Positions 4,269-26,939 of a DNA stretch of 64,000 bases are shown here, piece by piece. How positions within the stretch are numbered: the first letter of the stretch is position 1; the number at the start of each line of letters is the position of its first letter. Both the position numbers and the translations under genes were made by a program. Below the pieces are notes generated by a model, which saw only the letters and a program-made list of their open reading frames with translations, was not told the DNA's origin and did not search any database. Source of the stretch: Croceicoccus naphthovorans (GTDB lineage: Bacteria > Pseudomonadota > Alphaproteobacteria > Sphingomonadales > Sphingomonadaceae); NCBI RefSeq assembly GCF_001028705.1, contig NZ_CP011770.1:2483501-2547500 (forward strand). The letters are read 5' to 3'.

Positions 4269-4292
4269 GGCGGTGGTGGACAGGGCTGGATT
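4269..4292. repeat. Left attachment repeat: exact copy of the tRNA-Tyr 3' end
   Basis: These 24 bases are identical and in the same orientation to 26849-26872. The right copy covers the last 19 bases of the tRNA-Tyr gene, including CCA, plus five flanking bases. A direct repeat of a tRNA 3' end at the far side of a DNA segment that has an integrase next to the intact tRNA is the standard signature of site-specific integration. Confidence 0.75.
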
Positions 4293-4418: not shown

Positions 4419-4445
4419 CGGTGGTGGCAGGGCTTGAATCGAACC
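4419..4445. repeat. Second, diverged tRNA 3'-end-like sequence
   Basis: On the minus strand this reads GGTTCGATTC, AAGCCCTG, CCACCACCG. Compared with the tRNA-Tyr 3' end (26851-26878) it differs by two substitutions and one missing base over 28 positions. It reaches further into the T-arm than the exact 24-base copy 130 bp to its left. It may be the real left core site, a remnant of an earlier insertion, or the 3' end of another tRNA. Confidence 0.55.
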
Positions 4446-5449: not shown

Positions 5450-6235
5450 TTAATCGATTGCAAACATCTCCAGCTGAGTTTGCTTCCGCCAGTTATAGCA
5501 AGTTTGGCCTTCCCAGCTCTGAGCCTTTGCCCTGAGGCCCTGTAACCTCTCTGCGCTCAAGAAAGCGGCTTTTGAGTGCTCCGCATGATAGAGTAAAATG
5601 CTCGAATTGGCTTCACTATCAAATACATCTGCGATGAACTTCGTCAATCTGGGCTCAGTCCTAGCATGATCTTGCTCAATAAAGCGGAGCGCCCTCATAA
5701 ACATCCCCATAGTGTTTGGATTATGTTCGAGATTTATGTCCAAAGAAAGGTTTGCGAGTTGGTCGAAATAGTGCTCCGCACACACGATCTGGTTTGACCT
5801 AAGATCATAAAATACCGCGTCCCAATTGAAGAATGTAGTTTCGTTCAATGAACGCCTACTTTTCGGCTGAACATGGTCCTCGACAAAAGCCCAAGTCTTG
5901 TCGAATTCCCAAACGTCAAACAACCATCGACTTGAAGCAAGCCGATATCCACCAAACTTATTTTTCTTGAATTGGAATTTTTTTGCGATTGCCTCAATCG
6001 CCGCTCCTTCATGAGGCACAACGACTATATCAACATCGCTACTGAAATTTGCCCCCCCATAAAGAGCCAAATCCCGGAGGAGGCCACCGAACACATACAC
6101 CTCCGCCACCTCCCCAAGCTCCCGCGTAACCTGGGCAACTGCGCGACGTTCATAGGGGGGCGACTCAAAAAACCTTCGGACCCTCTTTTTCAGAACGTCT
6201 TTGTGCCGAGCTATTCTCACATTGACCCTCTTCAC
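5450..6235 (-). CDS. Nucleotidyltransferase-fold protein (last gene of candidate defence operon)
   Basis: A 261-residue protein with a nucleotidyltransferase core: FGG-LLRD at residues 49-55 and the metal-binding DVD at 67-69 in SSDVDIVV, the GG-x-DxD layout of polymerase-beta-like and CCA-adding enzymes. The remaining two thirds match nothing I recognise. It starts with GTG at 6235, whose GTGA overlaps the stop of the dGTPase gene, so the two products are probably made in fixed ratio. Possible roles include nucleotidylation of a protein or tRNA, or synthesis of a signal. The region is clearly less G+C-rich than the host core (28 of 60 bases at 5761-5820). Confidence 0.75.
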   Translation of the reverse strand: MKRVNVRIARHKDVLKKRVRRFFESPPYERRAVAQVTRELGEVAEVYVFGGLLRDLALYGGANFSSDVDIVVVPHEGAAIEAIAKKFQFKKNKFGGYRLASSRWLFDVWEFDKTWAFVEDHVQPKSRRSLNETTFFNWDAVFYDLRSNQIVCAEHYFDQLANLSLDINLEHNPNTMGMFMRALRFIEQDHARTEPRLTKFIADVFDSEANSSILLYHAEHSKAAFLSAERLQGLRAKAQSWEGQTCYNWRKQTQLEMFAID

Positions 6236-7698
6236 ATCCCAATTGTGTTTAGCTCTCGCAACTCCCTTTCGAGGTCTACCGCATAGCTATCCGTCATGCC
6301 GGACACCATGTCCGCGAGCAGCTGACAGCGCTTGTATGCCAAAGGTAGCACGTTGTTAGGGTCTTCGAAAACGCGTCGGTAATTTTCCGAGATGCGGTTG
6401 TAAACATACTTCTCGAAGACGCATGCCCCGTCTTCAAAACCTTGGGTATGCAATGGGTCGCCCCGCGCCTCGATCGCAGGCCACATCATGTCCATCAAGG
6501 AATGGATAATGTTGTGCCCCTTGAGCTCAATTTCCAGGACACTCTTGTGGAGAAACGCGTGCTGCAGCGAGCATTTCTTCAGCCCCTTGCAAAGGGCCTT
6601 TGCTTCCGACGACCCGATCAAGTCTCCTTCGAAAGTTCCAGACATAATTGCATCGTAGTTTTCAGAAAAAGCGCTGGTAACCGAAGTTACCATTTCGCCA
6701 ATCGCAAACACCCGAAACATCTGCATGGAGATGTCATTCAACTCAGCAGGTGAGAGATTGTGCTTCCTATGCTCTGAATCACGCTTGAGAGCTTTTTCCT
6801 TAAGCCTTTTAACGACCGGATCCTCAGGGAACTCAGCTGAGATGAAGTTTATGATATCATAAAACGAAACGAACCCCTTCTTGACCGAATCCTCGGCGTC
6901 AAGAACGGAGTAAGCAATATCGTCACAGGCCTCCATTATGTACGCAAGCGGATGCCGAACCCCTTCCGAAAGCCCCGTCTCCCGCCAAATCTCGTCACAA
7001 CAATCTCGTTCTGAATGGAAGCATCCGAATTTTTTTGTCGCAATTCGATCTTTATCCACTCGGTCTGACGTGACTGGGTATTTCATCAACGCACCCAACG
7101 TGCCGCAGCTCACATTTAAGCCAAAATTATCATTCAGAATTTGTAGCTTGGTTAGAATGCGTAGCGCTTGGGCATTCCCTTCAAAGTTCAGGTAATCTGC
7201 CTTCATCCGGTTTGCATCGTCATCATCGATCTCGCCCTCGGAGACGGCAGTTGTGAAATCGAGGGTCTTGCTTTCGTGTTCTTGGAACCAAGAGCTGATC
7301 GCATACTCTCCCTGATGGCCAAACGGCGGGTTTCCAACGTCATGAGCCAGACCCACAGCTGCGAGCATCGAAGGCAGATCACGCCTTGTGCGCTCGTCAG
7401 TTGGCACTCCCGTATCGCCATGAACCAGCGCCACACCAATGCTGCGCGCCAAATTCGAAACTTCATACGAATGAGTGAGCCGATTTCTCACGCTATCATT
7501 CTTATCCAGGGGAAAGACCTGCGTTTTGTCCGCAAGTCTCCTGATGGGGGCGCTGAACAAGATCCGATCATAGTCCCGTTCAATCTCTGTCCGAGTGCCT
7601 GCTGCTCCCAATTTGTCAGCGCCAGGTCTTGATCTAGCAAGATCCTTGCGCCTTACGCTAGTCAGCAACTTTGACCACTCAAGGCTGTGCGCCTTCAT
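6232..7698 (-). CDS. dGTPase-like HD-domain triphosphohydrolase, probable antiphage
   Basis: A 488-residue enzyme of the deoxyguanosine triphosphate triphosphohydrolase family, which cuts dNTPs to deoxynucleoside plus triphosphate. The metal-binding HD set is visible: RNRLTHSYEV (H76), GLAHDVGNPPFGHQGE (H119, D120), and ACDDIAYSVLDAED further on. Family members can protect bacteria from phage by depleting dNTPs. The start ATG follows AGGAGAG. It is the third gene of a four-gene minus-strand operon, 32 bp after the TcmP gene and overlapping the nucleotidyltransferase gene by 4 bp. A housekeeping dgt would not normally sit in a mobile element between these partners. Confidence 0.87.
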   Translation of the reverse strand: MKAHSLEWSKLLTSVRRKDLARSRPGADKLGAAGTRTEIERDYDRILFSAPIRRLADKTQVFPLDKNDSVRNRLTHSYEVSNLARSIGVALVHGDTGVPTDERTRRDLPSMLAAVGLAHDVGNPPFGHQGEYAISSWFQEHESKTLDFTTAVSEGEIDDDDANRMKADYLNFEGNAQALRILTKLQILNDNFGLNVSCGTLGALMKYPVTSDRVDKDRIATKKFGCFHSERDCCDEIWRETGLSEGVRHPLAYIMEACDDIAYSVLDAEDSVKKGFVSFYDIINFISAEFPEDPVVKRLKEKALKRDSEHRKHNLSPAELNDISMQMFRVFAIGEMVTSVTSAFSENYDAIMSGTFEGDLIGSSEAKALCKGLKKCSLQHAFLHKSVLEIELKGHNIIHSLMDMMWPAIEARGDPLHTQGFEDGACVFEKYVYNRISENYRRVFEDPNNVLPLAYKRCQLLADMVSGMTDSYAVDLERELRELNTIGM

Positions 7699-7730
7699 TC
7701 AACTCTCCTAAGCCAAAGCACGCTAATGCC

Positions 7731-8957
7731 TTATCGGACCAAAGAAAAAAAGCTCGTCTGGTCTCGCAATTTCAACACATCGGTATCCCTGATCGTATTG
7801 GCGCTACGGCGCAATCCCCCGTTTTGCGTCACCACTTCAAGATCAGGATTGTTGATGATAGCGAAATTAATGTCATCACTGTGGGCAGGAGTTTCGTTAT
7901 AGGAAGCCTTATAAAAATCACCAATCAGGAGCGCATTCGCAAATTTGCCCACTAAGTCCGGGATATCATCCAATAGTTGCTTTCTGGCGCTGCCACGACT
8001 GTCCTGATTGAACAGATAGAGATCAAGGCTTTCCCTCGGGTTGTAGTGCAGCATGCTAAGGCCCGATCTTCCAAAATGGGCCTGAGAGCTTTTATTTCTA
8101 TGAAGTACATCGTTGTAGACCTGTCGCGCTCTGAACGAATTCGCGAAGTGTATGAGCCAGTATCTCCAACCGTCCGGGTTATGGATCGAAAATGGGCTTA
8201 CATAAGAAGCGGCTCCCCTGAGGGTTTCAAAAACCACTTTCTCAACCGAGCCAAGCCAATTTGGCTTGGTTTGGTTTTCATCTACGTTCGAAATGTTGCC
8301 AGCAAACGGCACGGTATTGCTACCTATTATGTTCCGAATTCTCTCGGGCGAGAGATAGGTCAGGAATGACTCAATAGCGAATGTTAAAAAGACCTCCGCA
8401 GATCTCGTGATATTCATGAGCTCAATGAGGGTCGCTTCTGAAACTTGGGTATAACCATATTGATCGAGATTAAAGAGAGCGCTGCGCACGCGAGACGCCT
8501 GAATTCTTTGACAAATCGCTCTTCTACTCTGTTCAAACTCTCCAGTATGGAAACTGGTATGTAGTTCTACATTCGGATGGCACTCATTGATTTCGGCAAT
8601 GATCCCTGCCGAATTTTCACGAAGCAAATTGATCGCCTCAGGATCAACATCATTGAACGAGAAATAGCACTCAATGACAATCGGCCTAAAACCTTCAGCC
8701 GCTCGGTAGAGATTCAGCTTCTCTTCAGTCTGCCGCAAAGCATTAAGCAGAACTAATGGTGATCCGAATGAGCCGTCCTCATAGATTCCAGCACCACTAA
8801 AACCGTCTACGACTGCGAGGCGAAATTTTTCCTGCTGCGGTAGAACACACCTAACCCTCAGATATTCACGGAAGTATTCGTCAAGAATCCTTAGCTTGAC
8901 CCGCGAATGGTCATCCAGCGCGGCACCATTCTTCCAATCATAAGATTTTTTCACCAT
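7731..8957 (-). CDS. tcmP: Three-Cys-motif partner protein TcmP
   Basis: A 408-residue protein of the TcmP family, found as partner of DUF5131 (phage Gp37/Gp68-like) proteins. Residues 17-57 (HSRVKLRILDEYF then VVDGFSGAG) form a methyltransferase-like Rossmann nucleotide-binding start. FNDVDPEA and LFNLDQYGY follow where SAM-dependent enzymes carry their acidic and N/D-P-x-Y/G-like motifs. The catalytic activity of the family is unknown to me. Here the expected partner is immediately upstream with a 29-bp gap. The DUF5131 and dGTPase genes on either side are on the same strand, indicating one operon. Confidence 0.8.
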   Translation of the reverse strand: MVKKSYDWKNGAALDDHSRVKLRILDEYFREYLRVRCVLPQQEKFRLAVVDGFSGAGIYEDGSFGSPLVLLNALRQTEEKLNLYRAAEGFRPIVIECYFSFNDVDPEAINLLRENSAGIIAEINECHPNVELHTSFHTGEFEQSRRAICQRIQASRVRSALFNLDQYGYTQVSEATLIELMNITRSAEVFLTFAIESFLTYLSPERIRNIIGSNTVPFAGNISNVDENQTKPNWLGSVEKVVFETLRGAASYVSPFSIHNPDGWRYWLIHFANSFRARQVYNDVLHRNKSSQAHFGRSGLSMLHYNPRESLDLYLFNQDSRGSARKQLLDDIPDLVGKFANALLIGDFYKASYNETPAHSDDINFAIINNPDLEVVTQNGGLRRSANTIRDTDVLKLRDQTSFFSLVR

Positions 8958-8986
8958 GTGCGCGGATGAACCATCACTACTTTTGC

Positions 8987-9745
8987 TTAAGCGTGCAATA
9001 GTTTGGGCATTTCGTCGTACGTCCGCCCCCTGAGCAGGCGCCCGGCCTTTTTCTTGTTAACCCCGCCCCACTGCTTGAAGAAAAAGGCTGTACCTGAATC
9101 TAGGCACTGATCCAAAATACTCTCTACCCACTCCTTGTCCATTGGACGCGAGCGTGGCCCACTTTCGCCGCCGACAATAGCCCAATGTATTCCAGCTAGA
9201 TCTACGCGCCCGACGTCACCGACCAGAGGTTCGAATGAGATGAAGCGTACGCTCGCTGGAACGTTGCGCAGATCGTCCATGCGTTGAACGACCCGGTGAT
9301 CTTCGACGCTGGTGCCCAACCAAACATTTGCAAGCGGCTTCGGCGCAATTTCTTGTAACAGCTCAGCCATGCGGTGAGGTCGCTTTGTCAGAATTTGGTA
9401 ATGGTGTTGCGGCGTCTTTTTCATCACGCTCCAAATGCGGCCAACGAAGTCACTGGGCACATCAGGGTGGAATAAGTCGGACATGGAATTTACGAACACC
9501 CGGCGAGGCTTCTTCCAGGACAATGGAATCTCGACAGACGCCTCGTGGCAGCGCACCTTGTCGGTCCAAACAGCGCCGCGCTTCGAACGCTTTGTAAGTC
9601 CTTGATACTTTTCGTGACCCATTGCTTGCAACCGCGCAGCCATTCGCATCGCGTAGCAGTTCGTGCACCCGGCACTCTCGATAGAACACCCTACGACCGG
9701 ATTCCAAGTTAGGTCGGTCCATTCAATAGAAGATTGTTGCGCCAT
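8987..9745 (-). CDS. DUF5131 (phage Gp37/Gp68) family protein with three-Cys motif
   Basis: A 252-residue protein starting MAQQSSIEWTDLTWNPVVGC. The cysteines C20, C27 and C30 (C-x6-C-x2-C) resemble the iron-sulfur cluster motif of radical-SAM-like enzymes, and family features SMSDLFHPDVP, ILTKRP, WLGTSVED and SFEPLVG follow. The open frame runs 35 codons further up, but the ATG at 9745 has AAAGGACGGGA as ribosome-binding site and gives the family N-terminus. It is the first gene of the operon with tcmP, the dGTPase and the nucleotidyltransferase. No promoter stands out in the 180 bases before it. Biochemical function is not known to me. Confidence 0.85.
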   Translation of the reverse strand: MAQQSSIEWTDLTWNPVVGCSIESAGCTNCYAMRMAARLQAMGHEKYQGLTKRSKRGAVWTDKVRCHEASVEIPLSWKKPRRVFVNSMSDLFHPDVPSDFVGRIWSVMKKTPQHHYQILTKRPHRMAELLQEIAPKPLANVWLGTSVEDHRVVQRMDDLRNVPASVRFISFEPLVGDVGRVDLAGIHWAIVGGESGPRSRPMDKEWVESILDQCLDSGTAFFFKQWGGVNKKKAGRLLRGRTYDEMPKLLHA

Positions 9746-10516: not shown

Positions 10517-10656
10517 GATAATCTCTGAGCTTTCCAAATGCAGTAAGGTCGCCAGGACAGAGTGATACCGCCTAGTCCCGATCAGGATTTTATCATGAGA
10601 GGGCGCGCTTATACGTCGTGCCGACGCAGGCTTTGGAGTGTAACTGGATTGCCGAC
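10517..10656. other. oriT: Origin of transfer (oriT), MobQ/Ti-RSF1010-like
   Basis: The 140-bp gap between divergent traC and traA. The bottom strand at 10600-10613 reads TATAAGCGCGCCCT, very close to the nic cores of RSF1010 (TAAGTGCGCCCT) and Ti plasmids (TATAATTGCGCCC). By analogy the nick falls between bases 10604 and 10603 of the bottom strand. Next to it CGTCG-TGC-CGACG at 10614-10626 forms the inverted repeat that flanks nic in Ti-type oriT. Position, core and hairpin agree, so this is a well-supported prediction without experimental proof. Confidence 0.8.
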
Positions 10657-13542
10657 ATGGCAATCTTTCACTTCAGCGCAAAGGTCATCGGAAGGTCGAG
10701 CGGACGCAGCGCCGTGGCGGCTGCTGCCTATCGTGCAGGTGAGCAACTGCACGACGAACGCATCGACAGAACCCATGATTTCACCAACAAGGCAGGTGTC
10801 CTTCACTCCGAAGTGATGCTGCCCAAATGCGCGCCCGAAGCCTTCGCCGACCGCGCTACTTTGTGGAACGCTGTCGAGGCCGGAGAGAAGCGCAAGGATG
10901 CCCAGCTCGCCCGCGAGGTCGAATTCGCCCTGCCCCGCGAGCTGTCGAAGAAGGACAACATCAGGCTGGCGCGAGAATTCGTGAAGGCCGAGTTCGTCGA
11001 GAAAGGCATGATCGCTGATCTCAATGTGCATTGGGATATCGGAGAGGATAGCAAGGCCAAGCCGCACGCCCATGTCATGTTGACCATGCGCGAAGTGACC
11101 AAAGACGGTTTTGGCGCAAAGATCCGCGACTGGAACAAGACCGCGCTGATCGAACAATGGCGCGAGCGCTGGGCCGATCACGTCAATCGCGCGCTTGCCG
11201 AGCGCGACATCGATGCGCGCATCGATCATCGCAGCCTGGAAGCGCAGGGCATTGCGCTCGAACCGCAGGACAAGATCGGTCCCGCTGCATCGCGCATTGG
11301 CGGGCGCGGACTTGAGGCGGAGCGGATCGAGGAACACCGGGCGATTGCCCAGCGTAATGGCGAGCGGATCATCGCCAATCCCGCGCTGGCACTTGATGCG
11401 ATTACGCACCAGCAGGCGACGTTCACCAGGCGCGACCTTGCTGCATTTGTTCACCGGCATAGCGAAGGCAAGGAGCAGTTCGATGCCGCCTACAATGCGG
11501 TGCGCAGCTCCCACGACCTGATTGCGCTGGGAAAGGACAGACACGGACAAGATCGCTTCACTTCGCGCGCGACGATCGAGACCGAACAGCGGCTGCATTG
11601 TGCCGCCGACGCAATGGCGCAGCGAGCCAAGCATGGCGTCAATGATATGCATCGGAATACCGCTTTCGCCAGTGCGGCGAAGCGCGGCCTGGTCCTTTCA
11701 GGCGAGCAGAAATCCGCCTTCGAGTACGTGACCAAGAAGGGTGGTCTTGCCGTGGTCGTTGGCTATGCAGGGACCGGCAAGAGCGCCATGCTGGGCGTGG
11801 CGCGCGAGGCCTGGGAAAGCGCAGGCTACACAGTGCGCGGCGCAGCCCTTTCCGGCATCGCCGCCGAGGGGTTGGAGAACGGCTCCGGCATCGCATCGCG
11901 CACCATTGCCAGCCTTGAGCATCAGTGGGGCAAAGGACGTGAGCAGCTCACGTCCCGTGACGTTCTCGTCATCGACGAAGCGGGCATGGTCGGAACGCGC
12001 CAGATGGAGCGCGTGCTGTCCCATGCCGCCAAGGCTGGTGCGAAGGTTGTCCTGGTCGGTGACCAGCAGCAGCTTCAGGCCATCGAGGCTGGCGCGGCGT
12101 TCCGCGCAATCCATGAGCGCCACGGCGGCGTCGAAATCAGCGAGGTCCGCCGCCAGCTATCGGCATGGCAGCAGGACGCCACCAGGCATCTCGCCACGGG
12201 ACGCACCGGCGAAGCAATCCAGACCTACGAAGAACGCGGCATGGTCCATGCCGCCGAGATGCGCGAGGCCGCGCGGACAGAGCTGATCAAGCTCTGGAAT
12301 CAGGAACGGCAGGCCAGCCCCGGCGACAGCCGGATCATCCTTACCCACACCAATGACGAGGTGCGCCAGTTGAATGACATGGCGCGCAGGAAGATGCGCG
12401 TGGCTGGCGCTCTGGGTGCCGATGCCACGATCAAGGCGGCACGCGGCGAGCGCCACTTTGCATCGGGCGACCGCATCATCTTTCTGCGCAACGAGCGCGG
12501 GCTTGGCGTCAAAAACGGGACGTTGGGCACGGTCGCAATGGCCAGCACGCATGGCATGGCCGTGCGCACCGACGATGGCCGCGACGTTGCTTTCGACACC
12601 AAGGACTATGCCCACGTCGATCATGGCTATGCCGCCACGATCCACAAGGCGCAGGGCATGACGGTGGACCGCACGCATGTGCTCGCAACGCCGGGTATGG
12701 ATAGCCATTCAGCCTATGTTGCCATGTCGCGCCACCGCGAGGGTCTGGCGCTACACTATGGCCGCGATGATTTTGCCGATCAGTCGAAACTTGTCCGCAC
12801 GCTGAGCCGGGAACGCGGAAAGGACATGGCGGGCGATTACAAGCCCGAGCAGACCTTCGCCGAACTGCGAGGCATCAACTTCCGCGAGCGGGTCATGGAG
12901 ATGGTTCGGCAAGTGCCCGAAAGGGCCAAATCGATCTTCAGAAACTTCCGTCCGCAGGCCCGACAGCTCGAAGCGCTTCCGGCCCAAACCAACACGCAGA
13001 ACGACCAGCGCCGCGCGGTGGAACGCTATGCCCGTGCGCTTGGCGATCTTGGTACGATGCAGGCCCAGGGCTTGCCCGTCCTGCCGCACCAGAGGGACGC
13101 GCTGGAGAAGGCGGGCAAGGCGCTCGATATGATCAGCCCCCATGCCGCCAATGATCTCGCCAAAGCGCTGGAGCGGCATCCTGAGCTGATCGCTGAGGCC
13201 GCTGGCGGGCGAAGCCAGGAGGCTATGCGCGCCATGCAGCACGAGGCTGCCGTGCGCACCGATCCAGCGCTGCGAACCGAACGCTTTGTCAGCGACTGGC
13301 AGGGGTTGAGCACGTCACGCAAGCAGCTTGAGCAGCAAGGAGACCGCGCTGGCGCTGCCCGCGTGTCGAGCAAGCTGACCGAGCTGGCGAAGGGGCTTGA
13401 GCGCGATCCGCAGGTTGAAGGCCTTCTGCGCGGCAAGACCCGCGAACTCGGCATCAATCCAACGCCCGAACGCAGCATCGCAAACGAACTCACAGCGACC
13501 CTCAGCCGCGAACGCACCCGCACTTTCGACATGGGTATTTAG
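10657..13542 (+). CDS. traA: Ti-type conjugative relaxase TraA with helicase domain
   Basis: A 961-residue MobQ relaxase-helicase that nicks oriT and unwinds the transferred strand. The N-terminal relaxase has MAIFHFSAKVIGRSSGRSAV and AYRAG with the likely nucleophile Tyr25. The metal-binding histidines are H125 and H137/H139 (PHAHVM). The second half is a RecD-like helicase: Walker A GYAGTGKS (369-376), Walker B VLVIDEAGMV, VGDQQQLQAI, and HGYAATIHKAQGMT with YVAMSRHR near the end. The ATG at 10657 is chosen over a longer frame because MAIFH-type N-termini are typical and upstream is oriT. No mating-pair genes are nearby, so the element is mobilizable rather than self-transmissible. Confidence 0.95.
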   Translation: MAIFHFSAKVIGRSSGRSAVAAAAYRAGEQLHDERIDRTHDFTNKAGVLHSEVMLPKCAPEAFADRATLWNAVEAGEKRKDAQLAREVEFALPRELSKKDNIRLAREFVKAEFVEKGMIADLNVHWDIGEDSKAKPHAHVMLTMREVTKDGFGAKIRDWNKTALIEQWRERWADHVNRALAERDIDARIDHRSLEAQGIALEPQDKIGPAASRIGGRGLEAERIEEHRAIAQRNGERIIANPALALDAITHQQATFTRRDLAAFVHRHSEGKEQFDAAYNAVRSSHDLIALGKDRHGQDRFTSRATIETEQRLHCAADAMAQRAKHGVNDMHRNTAFASAAKRGLVLSGEQKSAFEYVTKKGGLAVVVGYAGTGKSAMLGVAREAWESAGYTVRGAALSGIAAEGLENGSGIASRTIASLEHQWGKGREQLTSRDVLVIDEAGMVGTRQMERVLSHAAKAGAKVVLVGDQQQLQAIEAGAAFRAIHERHGGVEISEVRRQLSAWQQDATRHLATGRTGEAIQTYEERGMVHAAEMREAARTELIKLWNQERQASPGDSRIILTHTNDEVRQLNDMARRKMRVAGALGADATIKAARGERHFASGDRIIFLRNERGLGVKNGTLGTVAMASTHGMAVRTDDGRDVAFDTKDYAHVDHGYAATIHKAQGMTVDRTHVLATPGMDSHSAYVAMSRHREGLALHYGRDDFADQSKLVRTLSRERGKDMAGDYKPEQTFAELRGINFRERVMEMVRQVPERAKSIFRNFRPQARQLEALPAQTNTQNDQRRAVERYARALGDLGTMQAQGLPVLPHQRDALEKAGKALDMISPHAANDLAKALERHPELIAEAAGGRSQEAMRAMQHEAAVRTDPALRTERFVSDWQGLSTSRKQLEQQGDRAGAARVSSKLTELAKGLERDPQVEGLLRGKTRELGINPTPERSIANELTATLSRERTRTFDMGI

Positions 13543-25442: not shown

Positions 25443-26657
25443 TCAATCGGAATCCGGGATAGTGGAATCGTGCGGCACGGCTTGGCCGGAGCAATAGTTC
25501 CCCCATGCCTCCATCAGTTTCACCCGCGCGCCGGGATTCTCAGGCGTGCCGAGATAGGTGGTGCGTCGATAGGCGGCCTGCACTGCGTCAGGCGTCTTGT
25601 GCGCCAATGCCGCTTCGACAACTGCATTCGGAAAGCCTTCGTTAGCGGCCCAGTCGGTGAAGCTGGAACGGAAGCCATGAACGTGGAAAGGCTCCTGCAT
25701 GTCACGCATAACCTTGAGCAGGGTCATGTTGGACATCGCCTTGCCGGTCATGCCGGGAAAAACCACTTCGGCACCTTCAAGCCGCATTGCATCGGCTTTC
25801 ACGAGCACCGCAAGAGCCGCCTCTGACAGCGGCACGATGTGCGCCCTGCTGCGCTTCATGTGTTCGGCGGGGATGGTCCAAAGGCGCTGGTCCAGATTGA
25901 ATTCATCCCACTTCGCGAGCCGCACTTCCTGCGAACGGACGCCCGTCAGAATGAGAAGGTCGAGCGCGAGACGCGAATAGGATGGCTTGCGGCGCAAGGC
26001 GGTTAGGAATGGTGGAACCGCCACGTATGGCATCGCCTTGCGGTTTGCCGGTTTCTTGACCTGTCGCGGCAGCCCTCGCCCCGCTTTCAGGCTGCTATTG
26101 CCCGATGGAGCCTCCGTGGAGCGCCAACCCTTTGCATGGGAGTAATCAAGCACCGCGCAAATCCGGTTGCGGACCTGGCGGGCTGTTTCGGGAATTTCCT
26201 GCCAGATCGGCGTGAGAACCGAGATGATATCCGCAGCGGTGATTCCGCCAGTCGTCATGTCGCCCAATTTCGGGAAGGCGTAGTTCTCCAAACTGGCAAG
26301 CCACTGGCGACCATAGACATCGCTTTTCCAGCCAGCCTCGTTCTCTGAATGATATTGGGTGGCGGCTTCACGGAAGGTGACCTTGGCCGCTTCCTCGTCC
26401 TTGCGTTCGGTCAGCACATCCCGTTTCTCGACCTTTACCGCCTTGCGGAGATCGGCAGCTTTCGCGCGTGCTTCGGCCAGCGTCACCAGCTTCGGACTAC
26501 CCAGTCCGATATCCTGACGCTTGCCATCACGCTGGATTCGCAGGAGCCAATATGCTCCTCCTCTTTTGTCGACTCTGAGAACTAATCCGTCGCCATCCTG
26601 ATAGGTGCCCGGATTCGCCAAAGCGGCCTTGACCGCAACCGCCGTGAGTTTGCCCAT
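25443..26657 (-). CDS. int: P4-type tyrosine integrase of the element
   Basis: A 404-residue site-specific recombinase. The N-terminal arm-binding domain (DUF4102-like) has DGDGLVLRVDKRGGAYWLLR and GLGSPKLVTLAEARAKA. The catalytic domain shows R241 (TGVRSQEVRLAKWDE), H327-x2-R330 (HGFRSSFTDWA), H353 (LAHKTPDAVQ) and the nucleophile, most likely Y363 (AAYRRTTYLG). It is next to tRNA-Tyr, which it has evidently used as target, and starts right beside five CTCCCACA repeats that are likely its arm sites. Such placement also lets the protein repress its own promoter. Confidence 0.95.
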   Translation of the reverse strand: MGKLTAVAVKAALANPGTYQDGDGLVLRVDKRGGAYWLLRIQRDGKRQDIGLGSPKLVTLAEARAKAADLRKAVKVEKRDVLTERKDEEAAKVTFREAATQYHSENEAGWKSDVYGRQWLASLENYAFPKLGDMTTGGITAADIISVLTPIWQEIPETARQVRNRICAVLDYSHAKGWRSTEAPSGNSSLKAGRGLPRQVKKPANRKAMPYVAVPPFLTALRRKPSYSRLALDLLILTGVRSQEVRLAKWDEFNLDQRLWTIPAEHMKRSRAHIVPLSEAALAVLVKADAMRLEGAEVVFPGMTGKAMSNMTLLKVMRDMQEPFHVHGFRSSFTDWAANEGFPNAVVEAALAHKTPDAVQAAYRRTTYLGTPENPGARVKLMEAWGNYCSGQAVPHDSTIPDSD

Positions 26658-26853
26658 TGGTTACTCCCACATCTTTGCCGCCAATGTGGGAGAAACCAAG
26701 TGTGGGAGAAAGTCACCTTACTCCCACACCTCTCCCACACTACGCCCCGGCTGCAAGCAAACAGAAGCGATCGGGTGCGGACGATGTAGAGCAGAATACC
26801 CTTGGTTTTCTGCGATTTCTAGGGCTTTTCGGGGATGTTCTGAGAAAGGGCGG
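26658..26853. promoter_or_regulatory. Right attachment region with five integrase arm-like repeats
   Basis: CTCCCACA occurs in direct orientation at 26664-26671, 26721-26728 and 26732-26739, and inverted (TGTGGGAG) at 26685-26692 and 26701-26708. The set covers the int promoter region and lies about 110 bp from the core site in tRNA-Tyr. Related TCCCCCACA pairs are at the left end (4497-4517). This layout fits arm-type binding sites for the adjacent integrase. No gene is seen. Confidence 0.6.
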
Positions 26854-26872
26854 TGGTGGACAGGGCTGGATT
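26849..26872. repeat. Right attachment repeat inside tRNA-Tyr
   Basis: Identical to 4269-4292 over 24 bases. It covers the CCA end, the 3' acceptor strand and part of the T-arm of tRNA-Tyr plus five downstream bases, and so marks the right boundary of the integrated element. Confidence 0.75.
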
Positions 26873-26939
26873 CGAACCAACGTACGCTTGCGCGGGCAGA
26901 TTTACAGTCTGCTGCCTTTAACCACTCGGCCACCTGTCC
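26854..26939 (-). tRNA. tRNA-Tyr (GTA anticodon)
   Basis: An 86-base class II tRNA read on the minus strand. It begins GGACAGGTGGCCGAGTGG, has the anticodon loop ACTGTAAAT with GTA, a long variable arm, the T-loop GGTTCGAATCC and an acceptor strand CCTGTCC closing with the first seven bases, followed by A and an encoded CCA. The 3' end is the integration target of the element but remains intact. Confidence 0.97.

What the first reader, a model, noticed from the sequence alone, without database searches (positions are those of the whole stretch)
5450..9745. Four-gene operon DUF5131-TcmP-dGTPase-nucleotidyltransferase as a candidate undescribed defence system
Seen: four same-strand genes with gaps of 29 and 32 bp and one 4-bp overlap, distinctly less G+C-rich than the flanking core, carried as cargo on an integrated mobilizable element. 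Known: dGTPase-type enzymes can block phage by emptying dNTP pools, and TcmP is the partner of the three-Cys DUF5131 (phage Gp37/Gp68) family. Inference: a radical-SAM-like/methyltransferase-like pair coupled to a dNTP-depleting effector and a nucleotidyltransferase would make a multi-part antiphage system. I do not know a described system with all four parts.
Basis: partly seen in the sequence, partly recalled or inferred. Interest (0 to 1): 0.78.

Follow-up and report, generated by a model that had tools for sequence, protein, structure and literature searches.

The report
Clover defence operon with extra pair
Two of the four genes are a recently described bacterial anti-phage system called Clover, which starves phages of a DNA building block, and in one group of bacteria it is found joined to a second, poorly understood pair of genes that is itself only a suspected defence system.

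Summary
The four genes are real, at the stated places, on a 22.6 kb element integrated at tRNA-Tyr. The main novelty claim is half wrong: the dGTPase and nucleotidyltransferase are CloA and CloB of Clover (Yamaguchi et al. 2025, preprint PMC12265719). CloA's best solved relative is Salmonella CloA; it keeps 6/6 catalytic, 8/9 dTTP-site and 9/10 p3diT-site residues, where five other dGTPases keep 6, 3-5 and 3-6. E. coli H5 CloB matches the family profile (216 bits).

DUF5131-TcmP is already a PADLOC candidate (PDC-M30/M41) and is normally separate: of 30 sampled TcmP loci 28 have DUF5131, and only the window's has a dGTPase.

What I found nowhere described is the compound. In one alphaproteobacterial CloA clade (support 100/100), all 7 loci with readable upstream DNA have DUF5131-TcmP-CloA-CloB in this order; none of 31 other scanned Clover loci with at least 7.9 kb upstream does. 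The TcmPs form a matching clade, the four genes diverge in step (r 0.89-0.98), and one carrier is a conjugative plasmid. A relative has an apparently independent, reverse-order association.

This is a heritable compound operon: a new variant of Clover. The added pair's action is inferred, not shown.

The parts
8987..9745 (-). DUF5131 (phage Gp37/Gp68) family protein with C-x6-C-x2-C motif (C20, C27, C30); first gene of the operon
   Evidence: PF07505 331 bits; PADLOC PDC-M41B 361 / PDC-M30B 335 bits; C20, C27, C30 and C214 identical in 31 of 31 aligned relatives
7731..8957 (-). TcmP, three-Cys-motif partner: predicted class I SAM methyltransferase, RlmJ-like, with a weak C-terminal GMT-wHTH match
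6232..7698 (-). CloA: Clover dGTPase effector (HD domain) with dTTP and p3diT sites
   Evidence: PDB 9p8s (Salmonella CloA) 488 bits, next family 214; residue tests
5450..6235 (-). CloB: Clover nucleotidyltransferase, overlaps cloA by 4 bp if the GTG start is used; D67, D69, D107
25443..26657 (-). tyrosine integrase of the carrying element
   Evidence: PF00589, PF22022, PF13356
26849..26872 (.). 24-bp att repeat at the 3' end of tRNA-Tyr; other copy at 4269-4292
   Evidence: tRNA-Tyr 26854-26939
4269..4292 (.). second 24-bp att repeat, other end of the element
10618..13542 (+). MobA/MobL relaxase-helicase of the element
   Evidence: PF03389 248 bits, PF13604 206 bits

Best explanation
The locus is a compound anti-phage operon: a two-gene DUF5131-TcmP module followed by a complete two-gene Clover module. 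Clover half (mechanism shown by others for Salmonella and E. coli, inferred here from conserved residues): CloA is a dGTPase that stays off, because CloB makes the thymidine dinucleotide p3diT, until a phage raises dTTP; dTTP then switches CloA on and dGTP is drained. DUF5131-TcmP half (inferred): a three-cysteine, radical-SAM-like Fe-S protein and an RlmJ-like SAM methyltransferase act together to modify nucleic acid, most likely RNA, as a second defence layer from the same transcript. The two modules were joined once in an alphaproteobacterial lineage and have since moved between replicons as one block.
For: CloA identity: top PDB hit 488 bits against 214 for the next family; catalytic 6/6, p3diT site 9/10, dTTP site 8/9; five dGTPases outside this family score 6/6, 3-6/10 and 3-5/9. 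CloB identity: E. coli H5 CloB, tested against phage by others, hits the CloB-family profile with 216 bits. A CloA relative lies before CloB in 47 of 47 genomic loci by tblastn; it is full length in 40, partial or split in 7. Compound: same order in 7 of 7 clade members with readable upstream DNA, 24-38 bp before cloA (-4 in L007 by the longest-ORF start); 8 rows (the 7 plus Sphingomonas VDB2, inferred from equal contig length) form one CloA clade, 100/100, against 40 others; 0 of 31 other scanned loci with at least 7.9 kb upstream have a DUF5131 or TcmP hit. Clover-linked TcmPs lie on one side of a 100/100 branch. Divergence of the four genes correlates, r 0.89-0.98. Carriers belong to Robiginitomaculaceae, Paracoccaceae, Rhizobiaceae and Devosiaceae and include a conjugative Phaeobacter plasmid; flanking genes are almost wholly unshared. 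Reverse-order association in L100. Correlative only: PDC-M30 was predicted in 32 P. aeruginosa strains, 68.8% of them phage-resistant (PMC10855318, passage).
Against: Nothing here shows that DUF5131-TcmP defends, or that the halves need one another. DUF5131-TcmP is usually alone, so neither half needs the other in general. DUF5131 is also a phage-borne family (phrog_2045, 317 bits), so a non-defence role is possible. Another PADLOC candidate pair (PDC-M63AB) showed no defence when tested in its host (PMC12409345, passage), so the candidate label alone is weak. T25 of the p3diT site is A or V in all 7 four-gene CloAs, though it varies across Clover. Y452, whose change to alanine abolishes Clover activity in the paper, is kept in the window and L003 but is F in the other 5 four-gene CloAs. 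No four-gene-specific docking insertion was seen in CloA. One origin followed by hitch-hiking in a mobile block could give much of the co-divergence.
Confidence: 0.75

Rival explanations
1. Two independent defence systems merely share a defence island and a promoter; their joining has no functional meaning beyond co-transfer.
For: Both halves occur alone. Clover also follows a type I restriction system (L030), McrBC (L024), RecB/RecD-like genes (L047) and an AddAB-like pair (L035), gaps 27-107 bp, so it joins many partners.
Against: Order and close spacing are kept at down to 38% CloB and 48% TcmP identity in hosts of several families whose flanking genes are almost wholly unshared; 7 of 7 readable members keep the pair.
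Confidence: 0.4
2. The four genes form one integrated machine in which DUF5131-TcmP feeds into CloA control, for example by modifying a nucleotide or RNA that sets its threshold.
For: Co-divergence, single origin with no loss seen among 7 readable members, a second association of the same two kinds of module in L100.
Against: CloA and CloB keep nearly all named residues of stand-alone Clover; no clade-specific insertion; most Clover and most DUF5131-TcmP seen here occur without the other.
Confidence: 0.2
3. The dGTPase is an ordinary housekeeping or stand-alone anti-phage dGTPase and the nucleotidyltransferase is a tRNA-repair enzyme.
For: CloB has the fold of CCA-adding enzymes and dGTPases are common.
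Against: The genome has its own separate dGTPase; the NF041026 anti-phage dGTPase cut-off is not met, 198 against 400; p3diT and dTTP sites are Clover-like; constant CloA-CloB adjacency.
Confidence: 0.03

Closest known systems
Clover (CloA-CloB), Yamaguchi et al. 2025, PMC12265719
   Same: Same two genes in the same order; catalytic, dTTP-site and p3diT-site residues nearly all kept; E. coli H5 CloB matches the family
   Different: Two extra genes precede cloA; the paper's main text has no occurrence of 'methyltransferase' or 'radical SAM'; CloA is 53-55% identical to Salmonella CloA and CloB 29% to E. coli H5 CloB
PADLOC PDC-M30 / PDC-M41 (TcmP + DUF5131)
   Same: The two proteins hit the A and B models of these candidates
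   Different: Only A and B components of these candidates were hit by the two proteins; here the pair is found upstream of Clover in a whole clade
RlmJ, 23S rRNA A2030 N6-methyltransferase
   Different: 13% identity; Foldseek's own top hits are other class I methyltransferases (best E 2.3e-05, TM 0.24); motif IV reads N-L-D-Q-Y-G; weak wHTH match; substrate unknown
CCA-adding enzymes
   Same: Fold of CloB (Z to 13.5)
   Different: Shorter (261 aa against 342-517-residue chains in the listing, apart from one head-domain fragment of 191); next to CloA in every locus found

Membership tests
Clover | cloA and cloB adjacent, same strand | tested here: met
   Adjacent in the window; CloA relative before CloB in 47 of 47 genomic loci
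Clover | CloA catalytic H69, H117, D118, D242, H126, E129 | tested here: met
   6 of 6; not specific: the 5 control dGTPases also have 6 of 6
Clover | dTTP activation site | tested here: met
   8 of 9; A444 (main-chain contact) is M; controls 3-5 of 9. Y452 is kept here but is F in 5 of 7 four-gene CloAs
Clover | p3diT inhibition site | tested here: met
   9 of 10; T25 is A; controls 3-6 of 10
Clover | CloB nucleotidyltransferase with catalytic Asp pair | tested here: met
   D67, D69, D107 invariant in 36 aligned members; E. coli H5 CloB matches the profile, 216 bits
Clover | p3diT synthesis, dTTP-dependent dGTPase activity, octamer, phage protection | not testable with these tools
   needs biochemistry and plaque assays
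PADLOC PDC-M30/M41 | TcmP-type and DUF5131-type proteins encoded side by side | tested here: met
   PDC-M30A 90 bits; PDC-M41B 361 and PDC-M30B 335 bits; gap 29 bp
PADLOC PDC-M30/M41 | phage protection | not testable with these tools
   candidate listing only; one correlative mention seen, no direct test seen in the passages read
Stand-alone anti-phage dGTPase (NF041026) | NCBI curated cut-off | tested here: not met
   198 bits against 400
rSAM mobile pair protein A (TIGR04471) | NCBI curated cut-off | tested here: not met
   87 bits against 355
Radical SAM enzyme (DUF5131) | three cysteines able to hold a 4Fe-4S cluster | tested here: inconclusive
   C-x6-C-x2-C invariant in 31 of 31, but the spacing is not the classical Cx3Cx2C (recalled) and no fold was predicted

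The most novel reading that the evidence does not exclude
DUF5131-TcmP is a true functional extension of Clover in alphaproteobacteria: a radical-SAM-like and methyltransferase pair that modifies RNA or a nucleotide and thereby widens the trigger or the phage range of CloA, giving a four-part, nucleotide-controlled immune system.
Probability: 0.2. Interest if true: 0.75.

Novelty: new variant of a known kind. Interest (0 to 1): 0.5.

Why it matters
It places a 'four-gene unknown' largely inside a mechanism already solved structurally, so the locus can be tested at once (dTTP activation, p3diT inhibition). It also offers a genetic handle on DUF5131-TcmP, a widespread pair (TcmP in 35 of 385 genomes of the class, 29 over the family cut-off) for which I found no described function: in this clade it has stayed with a known effector.

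Tried and rejected
The viral scan with the single CloB found nothing; with the alignment it found 1 locus, L048, with a divergent dGTPase next to CloB and no DUF5131 or TcmP hit.

In the class-wide genome search CloB was found in 1 of 385 genomes, the window's own, so co-occurrence statistics inside the class were not possible. The order search gave 4 of 396: of the three besides the own genome, L099 and L101 have no DUF5131 or TcmP beside Clover (L099's genome has a DUF5131 on another contig) and L100 has the reverse-order association.

The first CloA tree needed 4 changes for the four-gene label, because 4 rows without flank data were counted as lacking the pair. One search drops three of these, adds VDB2 as four-gene (inferred from equal contig length of its CloA and TcmP), and drops L048 as a long branch. 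In one search long branches meet (L100/L101 with L019, L099 with L020), so those placements are unsure. L017, one of the 31 loci without the pair, has a split CloA and was not placed in a tree.

In the TcmP tree (53 rows, 51 different) the tool's own count for 'four' was 8 changes, because rows of unknown linkage were set against it. I rely on the 100/100 branch that separates 16 linked plus 8 unknown rows from 26 unlinked plus 3 unknown. Only 41 of the 120 listed TcmP relatives were used. Linkage of 9 rows rests on equal contig length, and 'unlinked' for 21 rows rests on a contig of at least 43 kb that is absent from the capped list of 120 CloA relatives.

The absence of the pair from other Clover loci rests mainly on DUF5131: with the window's proteins tblastn finds DUF5131 in 28 of 30 TcmP loci, but TcmP itself in only 17 of 30. 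A search with profiles was not made there.

One control dGTPase (L084) was dropped because the script picked a wrong reading frame. For four of the five controls kept no CloB-like neighbour is annotated; neighbours of the host's own second dGTPase were not looked at.

Loci L001, L006, L008 and L016 could not be scored for the pair: L001 and L008 start at a contig end inside CloA; L016 and L006 hold only the later part of CloA (from residue 269 and 396) after about 900 and 1400 bases of other DNA, so those copies look truncated.

The longest-ORF starts in the scripts may be too early; the 4-bp TcmP-CloA overlap seen in L007 is such a case, since the annotated start of the similar plasmid gene gives a 38-bp gap. 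I do not count it as evidence.

A docking insertion specific to four-gene CloAs was looked for and not found; the one 4-column run reported lies in a loop of variable length. Promoter scan: 3 promoter-like sites, fewer than the shuffled mean of 4.5, uninformative.

The 2023 bioinformatic paper that the Clover preprint cites for the dNTPase-NTase pair is not held and was not read.
Full report
OBSERVATION. Gaps are 29 and 32 bp and the last two genes overlap by 4 bp if the GTG start is used; G+C is 0.496, against 0.620 in the rest of the element and 0.633 outside. The element is bounded by a 24-bp repeat of the tRNA-Tyr 3' end (4269-4292 and 26849-26872). It carries a tyrosine integrase, a MobA/MobL relaxase, two overlapping TraD-like reading frames, and cargo such as a chromate transporter and an AcrB-type pump.

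WHAT THE DOWNSTREAM PAIR IS. The nucleotidyltransferase has 53 listed relatives in the large protein database. A genome scan with an alignment of 36 rows (35 of these and the window, A1) gave 47 loci. In all 47 tblastn finds a dGTPase relative before it, full length in 40, partial or split in 7. A paper search on that combination led to Clover. I read its abstract, parts 1 and 2 of 8 of the full text, and sections 5, 7 and 23, and searched the rest by terms. The four Salmonella CloA entries are the best PDB hits of the window's dGTPase, 480-488 bits against 214 for the next family. Residues named in the paper were mapped: catalytic 6/6, p3diT site 9/10, dTTP site 8/9. Five control dGTPases, including the host's own second one, have 6/6, 3-6/10 and 3-5/9. 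E. coli H5 is one of the two strains whose Clover was tested against phage in the paper; its locus was fetched, and its CloB matches the family profile with 216 bits over nearly its full length. The CloB model (pLDDT 92) has the fold of CCA-adding enzymes. Clover membership is met for the features that sequence can test. One caution: Y452, essential in Salmonella CloA, is Y in the window and L003 but F in the other five four-gene CloAs.

THE COMPOUND. DUF5131-TcmP-CloA-CloB, in this order and on one strand, is seen in the window, L002 (Robiginitomaculum), L003 (Amylibacter), L004 (Maritalea mobilis), L005 (Hoeflea alexandrii), L007 (Rhodovulum adriaticum) and the conjugative plasmid pP14_b of Phaeobacter piscinae; a second P. 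piscinae plasmid with the same CloA and TcmP matches was not opened. These, with Sphingomonas VDB2 (linkage inferred from equal contig length), are one CloA clade with support 100/100 against 40 other rows. None of the 38 genomic Clover loci L009-L015 and L017-L047 shows either gene by tblastn; 31 of these hold at least 7.9 kb upstream of CloA. Loci L001, L006, L008 and L016 could not be scored. The TcmP tree of 53 rows separates 16 Clover-linked plus 8 unknown rows from 26 unlinked plus 3 unknown rows by a 100/100 branch. Pairwise distances of the four proteins over the seven loci correlate with r 0.89-0.98; 2 to 43 of 5040 permutations reach each value. Of 117 flanking reading frames in the seven loci only four pairs match between loci, all at 25-34% identity. 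The block therefore seems to move as a unit and has stayed together while CloB fell to 38% identity.

A SECOND JOINING. In genome G596, of the same family as the host, CloA-CloB is followed after 181 bp by a 124-aa gene, DUF5131 and a different TcmP (TIGR04474, 127 bits); G588, of the same genus as G596, has Clover and no DUF5131 match in the genome. Its CloA keeps 7 of 10 p3diT and 7 of 9 dTTP residues, so it is a divergent Clover. Elsewhere Clover directly follows a type I restriction system, McrBC, RecB/RecD-like genes and an AddAB-like pair, so joining other DNA-targeting modules may be a habit of Clover; the alphaproteobacterial case is the one seen throughout a diverse clade.

MECHANISM. 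Shown by others: CloA is activated by dTTP, restrained by CloB's p3diT, and drains dGTP. Inferred here: the same for this CloA and CloB; nucleic-acid modification by DUF5131-TcmP; co-transcription. Unknown: whether the halves cooperate.

PRINT. No paper joining Clover or a dGTPase with TcmP or DUF5131 turned up. The direct search for 'three-Cys-motif' with 'dGTPase' found 0 papers and 'DUF5131' 0; some searches were wider, and four of them showed only part of their hits. The library holds only openly licensed PubMed Central papers, so absence is weak evidence. The Clover preprint's main text has no occurrence of 'methyltransferase' or 'radical SAM'; its neighbourhood figures and supplementary table could not be seen.

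Noticed in passing
L030, L024, L047, L035 (upstream of CloA): Clover lies 27-107 bp downstream, same strand, of HsdR-M-S, McrB-McrC, RecB/RecD-like and AddAB-like genes respectively, which suggests a tendency to ride behind DNA-cutting machines.
   Followed up: partly
L100:4530-9196: Reverse-order CloA-CloB-124aa-DUF5131-TcmP in a relative of the host; a genome of the same genus (L101) has Clover without the added genes.
   Followed up: partly
window 4423-4445: A second tRNA-3'-end-like string (ending in CCA on the minus strand), unlike the tRNA-Tyr att copy at 4269, just inside the element: possibly the scar of another insertion.
   Followed up: no
G000:C1:1459828-1460928 (L105): The host genome has a second DUF5131 gene in a long open frame (494 aa) without a TcmP hit by tblastn in the 4.1 kb fetched.
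   Followed up: no
L013, L014, L015, L021, L022, L025, L027: A 141-156 aa gene follows CloB in 7 Alteromonadaceae loci, overlapping it in the three inspected; the one scanned (L013) has no Pfam match: a possible third Clover component in that group.
   Followed up: partly
L088 (E. coli H5): The experimentally tested Clover sits beside an integrase at tRNA-Sec, near genes annotated 7-cyano-7-deazaguanine synthase, DNA adenine methylase and 8-oxoguanine DNA glycosylase.
   Followed up: no
L048 (viral contig): A CloB relative with a divergent dGTPase (37% identity to the window's) on a contig of the viral collection: Clover may be phage-carried.
   Followed up: no
CloA of L002, L004, L005, L007, L080: Position Y452 of Salmonella CloA (stacks on dTTP) is phenylalanine in these five, as in 14 of 43 CloAs aligned.
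   Followed up: no
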